Position numbers and translations under genes: made by a program
Part shown: positions 1,704-23,761 of the stretch, one piece after another
Position numbering within the stretch: position 1 is the first letter of the stretch
How the letters are laid out: each line of letters begins with the position of its first letter
Notes under the pieces: generated by a model
Database searches by the model: none
What the model was told of the DNA's origin: nothing
The model's input: the letters and a program-made list of their open reading frames with translations, nothing else
Virus record (IMG/VR): IMGVR_UViG_3300025645_000299
Coordinates: 1-30,787 of that record
Origin: a virus
Strand: one strand, 5' to 3'
DNA: 30,787 nucleotides

Positions 1704-2276
1704 ATGAAATTAAGTAAAAATTTAACATACGCTGAAGCGATAAGATCTGAAACAGCTAAACGTAGACGTATAGAAAACACAGCACACGGAGTAATACTAG
1801 ACAACTTAAAGCTAACAGCAGATAAAATATTTCAACCCGTTAGAGATCACTTTAATAAACCTATTTACGTAAGTAGTATGTATAGGTGTGAAAATTTGAA
1901 TCGTATGGTTAACGGATCAAAATTCAGCAAACACATTACTGGACAAGCTATAGATATAGACAACGATGGTACTGATGTATCTAACAGAGATATATTTTAT
2001 TACATAAAAGACAATTTAAAGTTTGATGTATTAATATGGGAGTATAATGACGATAGTCCTAGTTGGGTACATTGTAGTTATGTAGAAGGTTTAAATAGAG
2101 GTTTAGTATATCGCAATACTAATTTAGGTTTAATAGAGTTTAAAGAACCTAAAGTAGAAAAACCTAAAAAAGTAAAGTATGAGCAAAGAAAGAAAAAAGT
2201 TCAAAGAGACGAAACTAGGTCAGTTCCTACTAGGGAAGTCGGGGGTGTTTCAGAGTCTAGCGGAGACAATACCTGA
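1704..2276 (+). CDS. endolysin, peptidase M15 family (D,D- or L,D-carboxypeptidase type)
   Basis: The protein is a 190-aa zinc peptidase of the M15_3 type, which cuts peptide bonds in peptidoglycan. The signature is clear: SSMYRCENLN leads into SKHITGQAIDID, which supplies zinc ligands H77 and D84, and PSWVHCSY supplies H123. The catalytic domain covers about residues 5-135. The rest (about residues 150-190) is lysine- and arginine-rich and low in complexity. No signal peptide is visible, so release through a holin is expected, and a holin gene overlaps the 3' end by 98 bases in another frame. That long overlap is unusual, and the basic C-terminal tail is probably shaped by the dual coding. 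Function is confident from the motifs; exact bond specificity is not determined. Confidence 0.87.
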   Translation: MKLSKNLTYAEAIRSETAKRRRIENTAHGVILDNLKLTADKIFQPVRDHFNKPIYVSSMYRCENLNRMVNGSKFSKHITGQAIDIDNDGTDVSNRDIFYYIKDNLKFDVLIWEYNDDSPSWVHCSYVEGLNRGLVYRNTNLGLIEFKEPKVEKPKKVKYEQRKKKVQRDETRSVPTREVGGVSESSGDNT

Positions 2277-2687: not shown

Positions 2688-3083
2688 ATGCGACAAAAAT
2701 TAATTAAAAAAATTGATAGGTTGTTTAGCGAATACATACGTAGAAAACACGCTGATAAAAATGGGTATTGTACTTGTATAACTTGTGGTAAGAAACATAT
2801 TTGGAATAGTGGTCAGATACACGCTGGTCATTTTGTATCACGAAGATTTTTAGTAACTAGGTATGATGAACGTAATGTTTATCCGCAATGTGCGTATTGT
2901 AATAATTGGCTTGCAGGTAATCAATATACATATGGTAAACGTATAGATGAGTTACACGGTAAGGGTACTGCAGATAAGTTAATGCTATTATCTAAACAAA
3001 CAATTAAAATAGAAAATTACGAATTAGAAGAAAAACATTTGTTTTATAAAAAAAATTTGATAACTTTGAGGAAACAATTATAA
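2688..3083 (+). CDS. NinG-like recombination protein (Rap family)
   Basis: A 131-aa protein with the phage lambda NinG/Rap layout: a basic N-terminus (KKIDRLFSEYIRRKHAD), a first zinc pair (C30-x2-C33 in CTCITCGK), the strongly conserved QIHAGHFVSRR stretch (H48) and a second pair C68-x2-C71 in NVYPQCAYCNNWLAGN, followed by a helical tail. In lambda this protein binds branched DNA and stimulates phage recombination. It is the first gene after the intergenic control region and heads a cluster of DNA-metabolism genes that follow with almost no gaps. Length is somewhat shorter than lambda NinG. The family call is firm; the precise activity in this phage is inferred. Confidence 0.85.
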   Translation: MRQKLIKKIDRLFSEYIRRKHADKNGYCTCITCGKKHIWNSGQIHAGHFVSRRFLVTRYDERNVYPQCAYCNNWLAGNQYTYGKRIDELHGKGTADKLMLLSKQTIKIENYELEEKHLFYKKNLITLRKQL

Positions 3084-11116: not shown

Positions 11117-11145
11117 AGGGAGTTAGAAGATGGCTCCCTTTTTTT
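11117..11145 (+). terminator. rho-independent terminator before the tail module
   Basis: Stem AGGGAGTT (11117-11124) pairs with GGCTCCCT (11132-11139), eight pairs including two G-T, with loop AGAAGAT, followed by a T tract to 11145. The next late promoter motif starts only four bases further on, so one unit ends and the next begins here. Confidence 0.85.
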
Positions 11146-11178: not shown

Positions 11179-11841
11179 ATGAAGCTCCAAATAAATGTGC
11201 CGACAGATCTAAACGAGATAACATTAGGTCAATATCAGAAGTTTATTAAAATACAAAAAGATAACGGTGATGGTACGTTTGTAGCACAAAAGATGATAGA
11301 GATATTTTGTGGCATAGATCTTAAAGATACTTTTAAAATTAAGATTACAGATATGAACGAAATAATCAAAATACTAAACGACTTACTAGAAATAAAACCT
11401 GAACTAATAAATCGCTTCGAAATGGATAATGTAGCATATGGGTTTATACCTGTATTAGAAGATATATCATTAGGTGAATATGTAGACATAGAAAACTATA
11501 TGCAAGACTGGGATAATATGCATAAAGCAATGAGCGTATTATATAGACCAATTGCTGCTGCACATAGAGATAAATACAATATAGAAGAATACGATGGTAA
11601 GGAAACCGAAGTAATGAAAGATATGCCTTTAGATATATGTTTTAGTGCGGTGGTTTTTTTTTACAATTTAGGGATCGAGTTATCAAGCAATATGATGGAT
11701 TATTTGACGGAGGAACAGTTGAGCAACCTTACGGAAGGTCAGCACAGTTTTCTAAGCGATGGGGGTGGTATTCAGCAATTTACGAACTCGCTCAAGGACG
11801 TATTACTGAATTCGAAAATATCACTCAAGAAAAATTATTAA
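11179..11841 (+). CDS. tail assembly chaperone (0-frame product, gpG-like)
   Basis: A 220-aa soluble protein opening the tail module. The body (MKLQINVPTDLNEITLGQYQ, then LINRFEMDNVAYGFIPVLED, then SVLYRPIAA) resembles tail assembly chaperones I recall from Bacteroidota siphophages. These coat the tape measure before tube assembly and are not in the virion. In the middle of its 3' part lies a run of nine T (11654-11662) from which a second, conserved-looking frame continues to 11921 in the -1 frame, the hallmark of lambda G/GT-type chaperones. The 0-frame C-terminus after the run (LSSNMMDYLTEEQLSNLTEG) also looks protein-like, so this stretch is dual coding and visibly richer in G and C. Confidence 0.76.
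   Translation: MKLQINVPTDLNEITLGQYQKFIKIQKDNGDGTFVAQKMIEIFCGIDLKDTFKIKITDMNEIIKILNDLLEIKPELINRFEMDNVAYGFIPVLEDISLGEYVDIENYMQDWDNMHKAMSVLYRPIAAAHRDKYNIEEYDGKETEVMKDMPLDICFSAVVFFYNLGIELSSNMMDYLTEEQLSNLTEGQHSFLSDGGGIQQFTNSLKDVLLNSKISLKKNY
11655..11661 (+). promoter_or_regulatory. programmed -1 ribosomal frameshift site (slippery T TTT TTT)
   Basis: In the 0 frame the codons are GTT TTT TTT TAC. The heptamer T-TTT-TTT allows both tRNAs to re-pair one base back. After the slip, translation continues TTA CAA TTT AGG for 86 codons. The -1 frame is open only from 11646, just before the run, and contains no ATG, GTG or TTG codon, so it can hardly be reached except by frameshifting. I did not work out a downstream stimulatory structure. 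Confidence 0.78.
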
Positions 11842-11921
11842 AGTCATTAAATGTATTATTATATATTAAAGAGAAAAACGAAGTAGAACAAGCAGAATTA
11901 AAAGCAAATGCCAGAAAGTAA
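11661..11921 (+). CDS. tail assembly chaperone, -1 frame extension (gpT-like part of a gpGT fusion)
   Basis: Read in the -1 frame after the T run, this adds 86 residues to the first 161 of the chaperone, giving a 247-aa fusion. The extension contains FSKRWGWYSAIYELAQGRIT and FENITQEKLLKSLNVLLYIK, the (K/R)WGWY-x-x-(I/L)Y-x-LAxGD/R-type pattern known from T-domains of Bacteroidota phage chaperones. It ends 14 bases inside the next gene, consistent with coupled translation. In lambda, the minor GT product binds tape measure and tube protein while G alone binds the tape measure. The same division of labour is inferred here. Confidence 0.75.
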   Translation, partial: LQFRDRVIKQYDGLFDGGTVEQPYGRSAQFSKRWGWYSAIYELAQGRITEFENITQEKLLKSLNVLLYIKEKNEVEQAELKANARK

Positions 11922-16900: not shown

Positions 16901-18258
16901 GAACTAAGCAATATGACTTTGGAAGTTCTGAAAGTATATTAGCTAATACTACATATTACTATTGGGGAACAGCTACAAATCAATACAGCTCAACAAAAGG
17001 TGTATCTAGTACTTACGAAACAGTTGTAACAACCACAGCACCATCTGCGCCATCAGTAGAAACACAAACAGAAAGTAGTGTAACATCTACAAGTTTTACG
17101 GGTAATATAAACATAACAAATGATAATGGTGCTAGTATAACAAGTGCAGGTATTTGGATGGGAACTAATAGTTCAGCTTATAATGCAGCAGGAAATACTT
17201 TTTATAATATATCTACTACATCTACAGGAGTTAAATCATTAAACTTTACAAGTCTTACTGGTAATACAACTTATTATTATTGGGGATCAGCAACTAATAG
17301 TGCAGGTACAACTATATCAACAGCATATGAAACAGTAACAACGCCTCTGCAAACATATCCTTATATAGTTTATTATAACAATACAAGCGCTTATTATGCT
17401 TGTGTAGTTAGTAGTACAAGCACATATTATTCTACATCATCAAGTTGGGCGGCAGGAATAACATTATATACTGATTCAGCGGCTACAACTTTAGCGCCTG
17501 ACGGGTGGTATAGATATAACCCAAATACATACAATGAAATTAGCGGAGGTAACGGAGTATTGGGAACACAACAAAATTGTAATTTAGATGTACAAAGATT
17601 AAGAATAACAACAGCATATCCTAGTACAAATTTTTATGATATAACAACAGCATTTAATTCTACATTAAGCACAACTAAACTATTATGGACTACTATACCA
17701 GTTACAGGGGGAAGTAGAGTTTATACAGATGAAAACCTAACAACACCTGTTACATATGGTTTAGGAACATTTAAAACTTTACACACATATCCACAAGATT
17801 ATAAATATCAACTATATCCAGATCAAGCATTTTTTGCAGCAAAGATTCAAAGATATAATACAAGTACTCAACAATGGTATGATTATCAATCTCAATACAC
17901 ACAGTTCTGGCAATTAGATAGTAATGGTTATATAGAAAGAGTTTATTGGAATTATGATAATGGTGATTTATACTATGACAGCGTTAACCCATCTACAGCA
18001 GGTTTATCTGGTATTAAAATATCAAGCACAGGTAGTAGCGATGCAACAACTGCTTGTGGTACTACACCAAGTACAATAGTTTATTACGATGAAACTACTT
18101 TAGGCAATAATACAGTATTATATACAGATTCTAGAGATGCAGGAGAAAGTACTGCTAATAATAAATTTAATGGTGGTGGTAACTGGTATAAGTTTGAAAA
18201 TAACTATAGAGCGCAAATAAGTAGCAGCGGTGTAGTATCTAATTATGCAAGTTGTTAA
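13984..18258 (+). CDS. large tail/baseplate protein with Fn3-like and Cys-framed modules (1424 aa)
   Basis: The largest protein of the window. The first 720 residues form a tail/baseplate-type body (NNIELYVKQFGDDNYTRLDL, then GKIFTNFSKTFSLPASKTNN, then ILGDRKLQDLDFLDEFDLTF), a start I recall from Bacteroidota phage tail proteins. After the body come surface modules: a Cys-framed module at about 749-808 (ACGYTLDTTVYYTG ... VSNYQPC); three Fn3/Ig-like repeats of about 100 residues each (about 809-1120, each with a TTYY(V/Y)(T/W) strand motif); a related Cys module around 1123-1200; and a last Cys-framed copy at the C-terminus (ACGTTPSTIVYYDETTLGNN ... VSNYASC). Modular ends of this kind usually contact host surface glycans or proteins. 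Receptor binding is inferred. Confidence 0.75.
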   Translation: MNNIELYVKQFGDDNYTRLDLFKDETISLTQTIQDVKDPGKIFTNFSKTFSLPASKTNNKFFKHYQNFIQSQDFSYDARKKSIAKIELNSLPYQKGKLRLEGVDLKNGRPDTYRITFFGELDLKEILGDRKLQDLDFLDEFDLTFTAANVKSGLTSSTGTGNIVGSDGETYTTPTLVSLIGNSMRGFYDNVNTTPSYWDFAKQEINISGGNLAANNSAQYSGYYWKDLVYSIRLYVIVKAIENSIKDTAGNKQIIFSNDFFNTTNTGFYNLYMLCQRNAGKILEGFGSSYTPNKQSLKSYANANNNHPNNLFLDTKIFTIRNLTSSQQFQFAITVNFTSITGYAYVDLRDKSSNTIVTTFNFNANGQRSFSIGNGRYELIFRADNAGVVVQDFKFDLIGLFGTYQTTSITTGNVDAGFTIPSQAFTIRNNIPDIKIIDFLTGLFKMFNLTAYKEDGKIYVDTLDSYYTSGTLRDVTEYTDSTTRSVDKALPYREIDFKYEDTNNILAKNHKEQFQSDWGSAAYNDDGSLDSNNTVYEIMLPFQHMKFEKLTTGLQVGHLLDDKQAPYLGKPVIYYPIYSTVANTGESPTQINFIEEINGYDSGSTNTTTGISSYWIPSNTPAILNTGAGYPESIHFNVEINEWNNSSAYTDTLFQKYYNSYITNVFRFNERLTKIKAKLPLSFLQQYTLADELQIGDFTYRINSITTNLQTGESSLELLNGSEAVVSSGVGSISITISASNSTTPSTACGYTLDTTVYYTGILGNTTQLFTDSALTTSYTGSGNFHSFPGSNYGTIDTNGYVSNYQPCPTQAPTMTTSSASNVTYQSFTANGSLDVANGTVTEKGFYIGTSPTYTNNTPKVVVSGTFTGSYLYNKTSSVSGNTTYYVTAYAINEHGEGIGTTVSLTTPSAPVPPTVSALTEQNVTYTGFTARLEITSDGGDTIDGAGFYMGVNSAAATNNPHYDISPAPTSIGTKQYDFGSSESILANTTYYYWGTATNQYSSTKGVSSTYETVVTTTAPSAPSVETQTESSVTSTSFTGNINITNDNGASITSAGIWMGTNSSAYNAAGNTFYNISTTSTGVKSLNFTSLTGNTTYYYWGSATNSAGTTISTAYETVTTPLQTYPYIVYYNNTSAYYACVVSSTSTYYSTSSSWAAGITLYTDSAATTLAPDGWYRYNPNTYNEISGGNGVLGTQQNCNLDVQRLRITTAYPSTNFYDITTAFNSTLSTTKLLWTTIPVTGGSRVYTDENLTTPVTYGLGTFKTLHTYPQDYKYQLYPDQAFFAAKIQRYNTSTQQWYDYQSQYTQFWQLDSNGYIERVYWNYDNGDLYYDSVNPSTAGLSGIKISSTGSSDATTACGTTPSTIVYYDETTLGNNTVLYTDSRDAGESTANNKFNGGGNWYKFENNYRAQISSSGVVSNYASC

Positions 18259-18286: not shown

Positions 18287-18436
18287 ATGTTACATAGCAT
18301 AATCGAATTATTGAAGTACTCTAAAAGCAAAAGCGAGAATGTACAAATAGCTAAAGGTAAATATAAACTACCTAGTAGTGTAAAAGAAGCGTATAACCAA
18401 TTTAAACAAGAGCTTAAATGGCAGAAAAAAGGGTAG
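18287..18436 (+). CDS. small basic protein upstream of tape measure (49 aa)
   Basis: A 49-codon frame that directly follows promoter copy 3 at the fixed three-base distance. This is good support that it is translated. The product (MLHSIIELLKYSKSKSENVQ, then IAKGKYKLPSSVKEAYNQFK, then QELKWQKKG) is helical and lysine-rich. Its 3' end overlaps the tape measure start by 19 bases. A small gene in this place could aid tape-measure expression or folding; no family recognised. Confidence 0.62.
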   Translation: MLHSIIELLKYSKSKSENVQIAKGKYKLPSSVKEAYNQFKQELKWQKKG

Positions 18437-20184
18437 TAGAATTAGAAGTACAGGTACAGGAAGTAATAAAGAACTTACAAGAGATAAAAGAGTCTTTTGC
18501 GGCTGTAAAAGAAAGTGTAGATAGTGTAGAAAAAACAGGAAAAGACACAACTAAAAAATTAAGTGATGGTTTTAGTGGTGTAAGATCTGCTGTAGTAGGT
18601 GTAGGTGATGCATTAAGTTTTATAGGTCTTACTTTAAAAACTTTAGGTATTAGTTTAATTATAGAAGCATTTGCAACATTTAAACAAATATTAGTACAAA
18701 ATCAAAGAGTTGCTGATTTATTTTCTAAATCTTTTACATTTATTACAACAGTATTCAACGATTTTGTTGATTTAGTTTTAAATAATTCTCAACCTATAAT
18801 TAATTTCTTTAAACAAATATTTGAGGATCCAATAGGTTCAATAAAAGATTTTGGTAATGCAATATTAGAAAATTTAACAGAAAGGTTTAATAGTTATTTA
18901 GAAACTTTAGGTTTTGTAGCTAGTGCAGTTAAAAAAGTATTTAGTGGTGATTTTGCAGGTGCCTTAAATGACATAAAAAGTGCAGGTAAAGAAGCTGTAG
19001 ATGTATTAACTGGTGTAGATGGTACTGTAGATAAAGTAGCAAAAGTGTTACCAAATGTAACAAAAGCTGTAAAGGATTATGTAACTGAAACAGCAAACGC
19101 AGCATCGGCTCAAATAGATTTAGCAAATAGTGCAAAATTAGCATCTGCACAACAAGAATTATTAAGAATACAAAATTTAAAAGCCGCTGAAGAACAAAGA
19201 CAAATAAGAGATGACACTACAAAAAGTATTGAAGAAAGAATACAGGCAAATGAAAAATTAGGAAAAATACTTGAAGAAGGTTTAGAACAAGAAAAAGTAT
19301 TAGCAGAAGCTCAATTAGCAGCTGCTCAAGCAGCATTAATTAATAATGAAACAAATTTAGATTTACAAGCTGAATTAGTACGAGCGCAAGCCTCAGTATT
19401 AGATGTAGAAGAAAGAATTGGTGGTCAAAGATCAGAACAATTAACAAATGAAGCAGGGTTATTAAGAGAAAAACTAGATTTACAAAATGCTGAAATAGAT
19501 AGACGAAATGAAATTAATAGATTAGATTTAGAAGGTCAATTAGCTGTAGAAGATGGTATATTAGATAGATTAGAATTAGAAAGGCAACTTGCTGAACAAG
19601 AATTAAATATTGCTAATGAAAGATTAGAAAATACTAAAGCTATATTTGGAGAAGGAACTGTTGAATATGAAAATGCTTTAGCAGAGAGAGATGCTGCAGA
19701 AAAAAGATATAATAATTCTAGTGTTAAAAATGAAAAACTAGTAGCAGAAGCAAAAAGAAAAATTGTTGCAGATGCATTAGGTGGTCTATCGCAATTATTA
19801 GGAGAAAACACTGTAGCAGGTAAAGCTGTTAGTATTGCTCAAGCAATTATAAATACATATGAAGGTGCTACTAAAGCATTAGGTCAAGGTGGTATATTTG
19901 GTGGTATTGCAGCTGCAGGTGTAATAGCGTCAGGTTTAGCAACTGTTAAAAAAATAGTAGCAACTAAAATACCAGGAACAAGTGATACAGCAGCAGCTCC
20001 TGGATTACAAAATACAATACAACAAGCGTTACCACCAGCATTTAATGTAGTTGGAGCATCACCTATAAACCAAATTTCACAAGCATTAAACAACCGTGAA
20101 CCAGTTAAAGCATATGTAGTGTCAAGTGATGTAACTACAGCACAGCAATTAGATAGAAATATAATTAGTGAAAGCGGAATATAA
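18418..20184 (+). CDS. tail tape measure protein
   Basis: A 588-aa protein with the tape-measure outline. It has a helical N-terminal coil (ELEVQVQEVIKNLQEIKESF), a hydrophobic membrane-like region (about 55-100: VVGVGDALSFIGLTLKTLGI then SLIIEAFATF), a long Ala/Glu/Gln-rich coiled coil (about 220-450) and an Ala/Gly-rich hydrophobic region near the C-terminus (about 455-520: IFGGIAAAGVIASGLATVKK). Tape measures set tail length; at the usual about 0.15 nm per residue this one predicts a tail near 90 nm, an estimate only. It is separated from the chaperone gene by four tail genes, whereas the two are usually adjacent. The start is inside the small gene upstream. Confidence 0.85.
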   Translation: MAEKRVVELEVQVQEVIKNLQEIKESFAAVKESVDSVEKTGKDTTKKLSDGFSGVRSAVVGVGDALSFIGLTLKTLGISLIIEAFATFKQILVQNQRVADLFSKSFTFITTVFNDFVDLVLNNSQPIINFFKQIFEDPIGSIKDFGNAILENLTERFNSYLETLGFVASAVKKVFSGDFAGALNDIKSAGKEAVDVLTGVDGTVDKVAKVLPNVTKAVKDYVTETANAASAQIDLANSAKLASAQQELLRIQNLKAAEEQRQIRDDTTKSIEERIQANEKLGKILEEGLEQEKVLAEAQLAAAQAALINNETNLDLQAELVRAQASVLDVEERIGGQRSEQLTNEAGLLREKLDLQNAEIDRRNEINRLDLEGQLAVEDGILDRLELERQLAEQELNIANERLENTKAIFGEGTVEYENALAERDAAEKRYNNSSVKNEKLVAEAKRKIVADALGGLSQLLGENTVAGKAVSIAQAIINTYEGATKALGQGGIFGGIAAAGVIASGLATVKKIVATKIPGTSDTAAAPGLQNTIQQALPPAFNVVGASPINQISQALNNREPVKAYVVSSDVTTAQQLDRNIISESGI

Positions 20185-23050: not shown

Positions 23051-23086
23051 AGGGTAGGTGGCATTTTACTACCTACCTTTTTTTTT
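23051..23086 (+). terminator. rho-independent terminator after the major capsid gene
   Basis: Stem GGTAGGTGG (23053-23061) pairs with CTACCTACC (23069-23077), nine pairs including a G-T, loop of seven, then T tract to 23086. Outer A-T pairs extend it. No late promoter motif lies between it and the next ATG (23102), so the tail tube gene must rely on read-through or an unseen promoter. Confidence 0.85.
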
Positions 23087-23734: not shown

Positions 23735-23761
23735 AAAAAATATATTTTTTTTTATTATATA
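23735..23761 (+). promoter_or_regulatory. late promoter motif copy 6 (portal unit)
   Basis: Six A (23735-23740), a 12-base spacer that is almost all T, and TATTATATA (23753-23761), then three bases and the ATG at 23765. A second TATTATATA at 23727-23735 precedes it directly after the terminator. Confidence 0.66.

What the first reader, a model, noticed from the sequence alone, without database searches (positions are those of the whole stretch)
11646..11921. Programmed -1 frameshift in the tail assembly chaperone, with long dual coding
The 0 frame passes a nine-T run (11654-11662). The -1 frame then stays open for 86 codons, contains no ATG, GTG or TTG, and encodes a chaperone-like section with RWGWYSAIYELAQG. 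Both frames after the run look protein-like for about 180 bases. The stretch is richer in G/C than its surroundings, which fits constraint from two frames. Phage lambda G/GT is the known parallel, with a different slippery sequence (GGGAAAG).
Basis: partly seen in the sequence, partly recalled or inferred. Interest (0 to 1): 0.72.

Follow-up and report, generated by a model that had tools for sequence, protein, structure and literature searches.

The report
Two-frame phage gene with nine-T slip
A marine phage gene appears to make two proteins from one stretch of DNA by slipping back one base at a run of nine Ts; hundreds of related viruses keep the run and both reading frames, which makes this an unusually long-overlap version of the known phage tail-chaperone frameshift.

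Summary
Confirmed and strengthened. The 0-frame ORF (11179-11841, 220 aa) passes T9 (11654-11662). The -1 frame is open from 11646 to the stop at 11919-11921, with no ATG/GTG/TTG. In three differently biased searches nearly every relative with complete tails has a T9/T10 (once T12) run, an open -1 domain of about 80-92 codons (WGWY motif) and an open 0-frame tail of 53-89 codons; one relative lacks the long 0-frame tail. Cultured Nonlabens phages P12024L/S and two very distant Bacteroidota homologues also have T9, so it is neither a sequencing error nor phase variation. Synonymous change is suppressed in both frames of the 179-nt overlap, and null simulations reject one-frame coding.

Best reading: a G/GT-type tail-assembly-chaperone pair. 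That identity rests on architecture and gene context, not on sequence homology. Whether ribosome or RNA polymerase slips is open; I lean to RNA polymerase (about 55:45): no downstream RNA structure, run never below 9, a doubly synonymous T never changed, and long runs avoided in other genes without slip-phase bias.

The long dual-coded overlap (179 nt; 18-21 nt in lambda and P2) and the obligatory nine-base run make it a new variant of a known kind.

The parts
11179..11841 (+). 0-frame ORF, 220 aa: shared N-terminal domain (to about residue 160) plus a 59-aa 0-frame tail
   Evidence: ORF list; relatives; AlphaFold2 model confident over the N domain, pLDDT under 50 for 178-220
11654..11662 (+). 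T9 slip run (GTT TTT TTT TAC), contains the heptamer T TTT TTT
   Evidence: T9 or T10 in all 128 distinct relatives; T9, T10 or once T12 in the N-domain search
11646..11921 (+). -1 open frame (stop 11919-11921); 86 codons after the run with the motif RWGWYSAIYELAQG; no ATG/GTG/TTG
   Evidence: alignments A3 and A6
11663..11841 (+). stretch open and selected in both frames (179 nt)
   Evidence: codon resampling, synonymous O/E and null simulations, flattened codon-position pattern
11842..11921 (+). part of the -1 domain read in the -1 frame only; its last 14 nt overlap the start of the next gene (11908)
11117..11139 (+). terminator-like hairpin upstream of the gene (9-bp stem followed by a T run)
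   Evidence: pattern scan only, 1 found against 0.4 in shuffles

Best explanation
One gene yields two proteins that share an N-terminal domain. Reading straight through the nine-T run gives a 220-aa product with a 59-aa 0-frame tail. Slippage by one base at the run (read as V V F F L Q F) gives a fusion with an 86-aa helical WGWY domain of the -1 frame. The pair most likely works like lambda gpG and gpGT: many copies of the unshifted form and few of the fusion bind the tape-measure protein, and the extra domain recruits tail-tube subunits. The slip is driven by the homopolymer itself; I think RNA polymerase slippage (a fraction of mRNAs with one extra U) is the main source, about 55:45 over ribosomal -1 slippage on T TTT TTT. 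Shown here: the run, both open frames, their conservation, and selection on both frames. Inferred: that the fusion is made, that the pair is a tail chaperone, and the level at which the slip occurs. The confidence below is for the frame transition, the dual coding and the chaperone-like role together; the transition alone I put at 0.97, the dual coding at 0.93, the level of slippage at 0.55.
For: T9/T10 (once T12), open -1 domain and open 0-frame tail in three searches with different biases. Same T9 and -1 domain in cultured phages P12024L/S and T9 in two very distant Bacteroidota homologues. Both frames constrained. No complete locus has the two parts in one frame. For the chaperone role: shared N-terminus with -1 extension as in lambda, HK97 and P2, terminase upstream and a tape-measure-like protein downstream. 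For slippage on the run itself: no downstream RNA structure, run never under nine, doubly synonymous T at 11661 never C in 48 T9 lineages, runs of 8-9 and more avoided in other ORFs in all phases; 9-base A/T runs are a known threshold for selection against transcriptional slippage (PMC1088944).
Against: No protein or RNA evidence. No detectable sequence homology to lambda G or P2 E, no Pfam or PDB match. The gene is not next to the tape-measure gene, as it is in lambda, HK97 and P2. Every run also contains T TTT TTT, and the invariance at 11661 is only about P = 0.004 if Leu codon usage is added to Phe usage (counts); an A-site UUU preference would explain it without polymerase slippage. The 0-frame tail is predicted with low confidence, is short in P12024L (about 25 codons) and is missing in L127.
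Confidence: 0.78

Rival explanations
1. Classical ribosomal -1 frameshifting alone: tandem slippage of two Phe-tRNAs on T TTT TTT, as on T TTT TTG in P2, with no polymerase slippage. Same two proteins.
For: T TTT TTT is present in every run. P2 uses a T-rich heptamer at the same kind of gene. All other tail-chaperone frameshifts named in the review read here are ribosomal (PMC5009743).
Against: No stimulatory structure; a run of nine or more is kept where seven would do; T TTT TTC at 11659-11661 would be silent in both frames and is never seen; slip-phase T7 and A7 are not specially avoided elsewhere.
Confidence: 0.42
2. Same frame transition, but the protein is not a tail assembly chaperone; for example a head-tail joining or other assembly factor with two C-terminal forms.
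For: It directly follows the terminase in P12024L and is far from the tape-measure gene here; no homology to known chaperones was detected.
Against: A shared N-terminus with a -1 extension in tailed phages is typical of tail chaperones (PMC5009743); one annotated tail assembly chaperone is a weak fold match (A0A8S5V8Z8, probability 0.94, E 0.17).
Confidence: 0.18
3. Only the -1 frame is functional past the run; the 0-frame tail is a by-product that happens to stay open.
For: The tail is less conserved than the -1 domain (mean column identity 36% against 54%), poorly predicted, short in P12024L and lost in L127.
Against: Chance openness given the -1 peptide is 0-0.025 in each of 16 relatives; synonymous change in frame 0 is cut to about a third to a half of expectation; 0-frame similarity exceeds the null by z 5.8 on average.
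Confidence: 0.06
4. Phase variation or sequencing error at the homopolymer: the true or alternative genome has one T more and a single fused ORF.
For: Homopolymers are error-prone and hypermutable in general.
Against: No complete locus from many independent assemblies is in the fused state, and runs of 9, 10 and 12 all keep the same frame relation; cultured P12024L/S agree; an error would not explain selection on both frames.
Confidence: 0.02
5. The -1 ORF is a separate gene with its own start.
For: P12024L is annotated that way (gp41 from an internal ATG).
Against: No ATG/GTG/TTG in the window's -1 frame; 92 of 128 distinct sequences have none before WGWY and only two ATG codons occur there in the whole set; -1 conservation starts at the run.
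Confidence: 0.02

Closest known systems
Phage lambda G/GT (also HK97 gp13 and its frameshift product)
   Same: Two proteins with a shared N-terminus, the longer made by a -1 shift near the end of the first ORF; tail-module neighbourhood; no own start needed for the second part
   Different: Slip site G GGA AAG with 18 nt of 0 frame after it against a T9 run with 179 nt of conserved dual coding; lambda G/T lie next to V and H, this gene does not lie next to its tape-measure gene; no detectable homology
Phage P2 E/E+E'
   Same: -1 shift on a T-rich site (T TTT TTG) in a tail gene
   Different: T6 rather than T9; 21 nt of 0 frame after the site; next to the tape-measure gene; no detectable homology
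Transcriptional slippage genes: Shigella mxiE/spa genes, Thermus dnaX, Citrobacter tssM1, IS elements with 9A/9T
   Same: Nine-base or longer A/T run; no stimulatory RNA structure; avoidance of such runs in other genes (PMC1088944; PMC4256274)
   Different: Not phage tail genes; mRNA heterogeneity was measured there and could not be measured here
Flavobacterium phage 11b gp38 and Cellulophaga phage phi10:1 (unannotated ORF at 36528)
   Same: Probable chaperone genes that switch to -1 at a homopolymer, A9 and A8
   Different: A rather than T; 0-frame tail of only about 1-6 codons; no sequence relation to this family seen
PHROG phrog_32199 and Nonlabens phage P12024L gp40/gp41
   Same: Homologous: N domain (E 3.7e-18), same T9 and -1 WGWY domain
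   Different: Annotated as two unrelated hypothetical proteins; 0-frame tail only about 25 codons

Membership tests
Tail assembly chaperone pair of the lambda G/GT type | Two products with a shared N-terminus, the second reached by a conserved programmed frame switch | tested here: met
   Sequence architecture in the window and in 128 distinct relatives; the products themselves not tested
Tail assembly chaperone pair of the lambda G/GT type | Location just upstream of the tape-measure gene | tested here: not met
   About 6.5 kb and three large ORFs lie between the gene and the tape-measure-like ORF at 18418; the gene is in the terminase-to-tail block
Tail assembly chaperone pair of the lambda G/GT type | Sequence or fold homology to a known chaperone | tested here: inconclusive
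   No Pfam match, no hhalign match to lambda G or P2 E; one annotated chaperone among weak fold matches. These families diverge beyond such methods
Tail assembly chaperone pair of the lambda G/GT type | Binds tape-measure and tube proteins, absent from virions, ratio-sensitive | not testable with these tools
   Needs experiments
Canonical ribosomal -1 frameshift site | X XXY YYZ heptamer in phase | tested here: met
   T TTT TTT in the window and in all runs of nine or more
Canonical ribosomal -1 frameshift site | Downstream stimulatory RNA structure | tested here: not met
   Mean folding z +0.1 over 70 lineages, window z +1.2 to -0.3; pseudoknots and upstream SD-like stimulators were not modelled, and some bacterial sites need none
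Programmed transcriptional slippage site | A/T run of about nine or more, conserved in length | tested here: met
   9, 10 or once 12, never 7 or 8, in all complete runs
Programmed transcriptional slippage site | Such runs selected against in other genes of the same genomes | tested here: met
   T9+ 4 found (3 of them members of this family) against 14.7 expected, A9+ 8 against 50.6; replication slippage could cause the same
Programmed transcriptional slippage site | mRNA heterogeneous in run length | not testable with these tools
   Needs cDNA sequencing

The most novel reading that the evidence does not exclude
In a large, mostly marine group of Bacteroidota phages, RNA polymerase slippage on an obligatory nine-base run, not the ribosome, sets the ratio of the two tail-chaperone forms, and the unshifted form carries its own selected C-terminus of up to about 89 residues encoded in the same DNA as the other form's domain.
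Probability: 0.4. Interest if true: 0.75.

Novelty: new variant of a known kind. Interest (0 to 1): 0.55.

Why it matters
It offers a large set of natural variants of one slip site and a dual-coded stretch of 53-89 codons in a phage assembly gene. That makes two questions testable: can tail-chaperone ratios be set at transcription, and how do two proteins evolve in one stretch of DNA. It also shows how annotation splits or loses the -1 domain (P12024L gp41).

Tried and rejected
Stimulatory RNA structure: none. Rfam and tRNA scans of the window: nothing. Pfam, NCBIfam, PDB sequence and PDB fold searches: no informative match; the retron Eco8 rows (Z about 4.5) are a partial, mostly helical match and mean little. 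hhalign to lambda G and P2 E: nothing. HK97 was fetched but not compared by profile. Flavobacterium phage 6H, a weak fold match, has only a T6 run and a -1 stop right after it, so it was not used. Ascertainment: the first search used the whole 0-frame protein, which could favour open 0 frames, so it was repeated with the -1 domain alone and with the N domain alone, with the same result. L167 (Rubrivivax) is a chance match. Genome searches among Bacteroidota found few members. Queries with the two distant homologues in cultured phages found nothing. Searches failed on input errors. No paper found describes this site; only open-access papers are held, so the survey of Xu, Hendrix and Duda 2004 could not be read and the novelty claim is limited by that.

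Full report
What is in the sequence. The window is a 30,787-base IMG/VR virus record. The ORF 11179-11841 passes a T9 run at 11654-11662, in frame 0 as GTG GTT TTT TTT TAC. The -1 frame is open from 11646 to the TAA at 11919-11921, 86 codons after the run, without ATG, GTG or TTG. The 0 frame continues 59 codons to 11841. The third frame closes within 0-2 codons after the run in all 128 distinct relatives (median 2); a few loci reach 4-7.

Is it conserved. Three searches of IMG/VR with different biases were run. With the whole 0-frame protein, 80 loci (46-100% identity) all show T9 or T10 in the same frame relation, an open -1 frame and an open 0-frame tail. With only the -1 domain as query, which says nothing about the 0 frame, all loci but two carry T9 or T10 and a separate 0-frame ORF; the two are a contig cut at the run (L088) and a chance hit (L167). 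One locus, L127, has a 0-frame stop about 6 codons after the run; all other complete ones have 53 codons or more. With only the N-terminal domain, which says nothing about either tail, all loci but L240 (contig ends before the run) have T9, T10 or, once, T12; where both tails are complete the -1 tail is 81-92 codons and the 0-frame tail 53-89. No complete locus has the two parts in one frame. The cultured Nonlabens phages P12024L/S carry the same T9 and a -1 WGWY domain, annotated as an independent gp41. Two very distant homologues in Bacteroidota genomes (E about 1e-10; local G+C 44.5% and 39.7%) also have nine Ts, one in another phase: GCT TTT TTT TTG and GTT TTT TTT TGC.

Are both frames coding. 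Resampling synonymous codons of the -1 peptide leaves the 0 frame open over the observed overlap with P between 0 and 0.025 in 16 diverse relatives, and the converse with P 0 to 0.026; the milder within-sequence permutation is less extreme (0.004-0.40). Relative to the upstream part of the same genes, synonymous changes in the overlap are reduced to 0.20-0.58 of expectation in frame 0 and 0.31-0.71 in frame -1, depending on divergence. The -1 tail beyond the 0-frame stop is also reduced (0.37-0.69), so the -1 reduction is not wholly due to the overlap. In 44 disjoint pairs, 0-frame similarity exceeds a null that keeps the -1 peptides by z 5.8 on average, and the converse by 7.2; these z values lean partly on stop codons in the null scoring low, while the openness test does not. 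Substitutions per site at codon positions 1/2/3 are 0.18/0.11/0.40 upstream, 0.14/0.08/0.26 in the -1-only tail and 0.11/0.17/0.18 (0-frame positions) in the overlap: the flattened pattern expected of two constrained frames.

How the slip may work. Every run contains T TTT TTT, so ribosomal slippage is possible. Four observations point to the run itself. First, no RNA structure follows (mean z +0.1 over 70 lineages). Second, the run is never shorter than nine although a heptamer needs seven; in L181 and L190, where the codon after the run begins with C, the run begins one base earlier and still counts nine. Third, T to C at 11661 (third base of the second Phe codon, first base of the -1 Leu codon) is silent in both frames and leaves T TTT TTC, yet it never occurs in 48 T9 lineages (80% clusters); P is 2e-6 from Phe codon usage and about 0.004 if Leu usage is combined with it (my arithmetic on the counts). 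Fourth, in 848 other ORFs of these loci T9 or longer occurs 4 times, three of them members of this family that the filter missed, against 14.7 expected, and A9 or longer 8 times against 50.6; T7 and A7 in ribosomal slip phase are not avoided more than in other phases. Published work finds selection against A/T runs at nine bases in many bacterial genomes (PMC1088944) and 15-55% slippage at such runs in several genes (PMC4256274). An A-site preference for UUU, or replication slippage, could explain parts of this, so I put polymerase slippage at only about 0.55.

What the gene is. The N domain is predicted as a confident mixed fold, the 0-frame tail with low confidence, and the -1 domain as helices at middling confidence. 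The protein matches phrog_32199, of unknown function, but no Pfam family and no solved structure. A tape-measure-like protein lies at 18418-20184. The layout is that of a tail assembly chaperone pair. That is an inference: homology to lambda G and P2 E was looked for and not seen, and the gene is not next to the tape-measure gene.

What is different. After the slip site lambda has 18 nt and P2 21 nt of 0 frame; here it is 179 nt, and about 266 nt in relatives such as L051, where both C-termini are nearly equal in length (88 and 91 codons). Flavobacterium phage 11b and Cellulophaga phage phi10:1, with unrelated probable chaperone genes, switch frame at A9 and A8 with short 0-frame tails. Homopolymer slip sites may thus be common in flavobacterial phages, while the long dual coding is particular to this family.

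Verdict. New variant of a known kind.

Noticed in passing
L263 (Flavobacterium phage 11b, AJ842011) 17864-18202, -1 extension to about 18525: gp38 ends 6 codons after an A9 run; the -1 frame runs on about 114 codons to just before the long gene gp40 (18521). Looks like an unannotated chaperone frameshift on a nine-base A run; phi10:1 has a relative with A8 (L265, 36889).
   Followed up: partly
window 2688-3083: A NinG-like ORF contains an A8 run 8 codons before its end, with a -1 frame open for 72 codons after it; it may simply be the next gene.
   Followed up: no
window 1704-2276 and 2179-2595: Two ORFs overlap by 98 nt in different frames, a second possible dual-coded stretch.
   Followed up: no
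L127, about 6 codons after its T10 run: The only complete relative with an early 0-frame stop; the -1 domain is intact. Either a real loss of the 0-frame tail or a base error.
   Followed up: no
window 11663 onward and relatives: The third frame has a stop within 0-2 codons of the run in all 128 distinct relatives, so a slip in the other direction would end the protein at once. Probably a by-product of the conserved residues in the other two frames.
   Followed up: partly
BFVD entries A0A6J5MY57 and A0A6J7XA66: Predicted proteins of 234-244 aa from uncultured phages appear in the fold searches of both the 0-frame model and, weakly, the -1 domain; possibly relatives with both parts in one frame.
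   Followed up: no
window 11117-11139: Terminator-like hairpin with a T run just upstream of the gene.
   Followed up: no
window 23078-23086 and 23745-23753: The other two T9 runs of the window, both between ORFs near the capsid gene.
   Followed up: no
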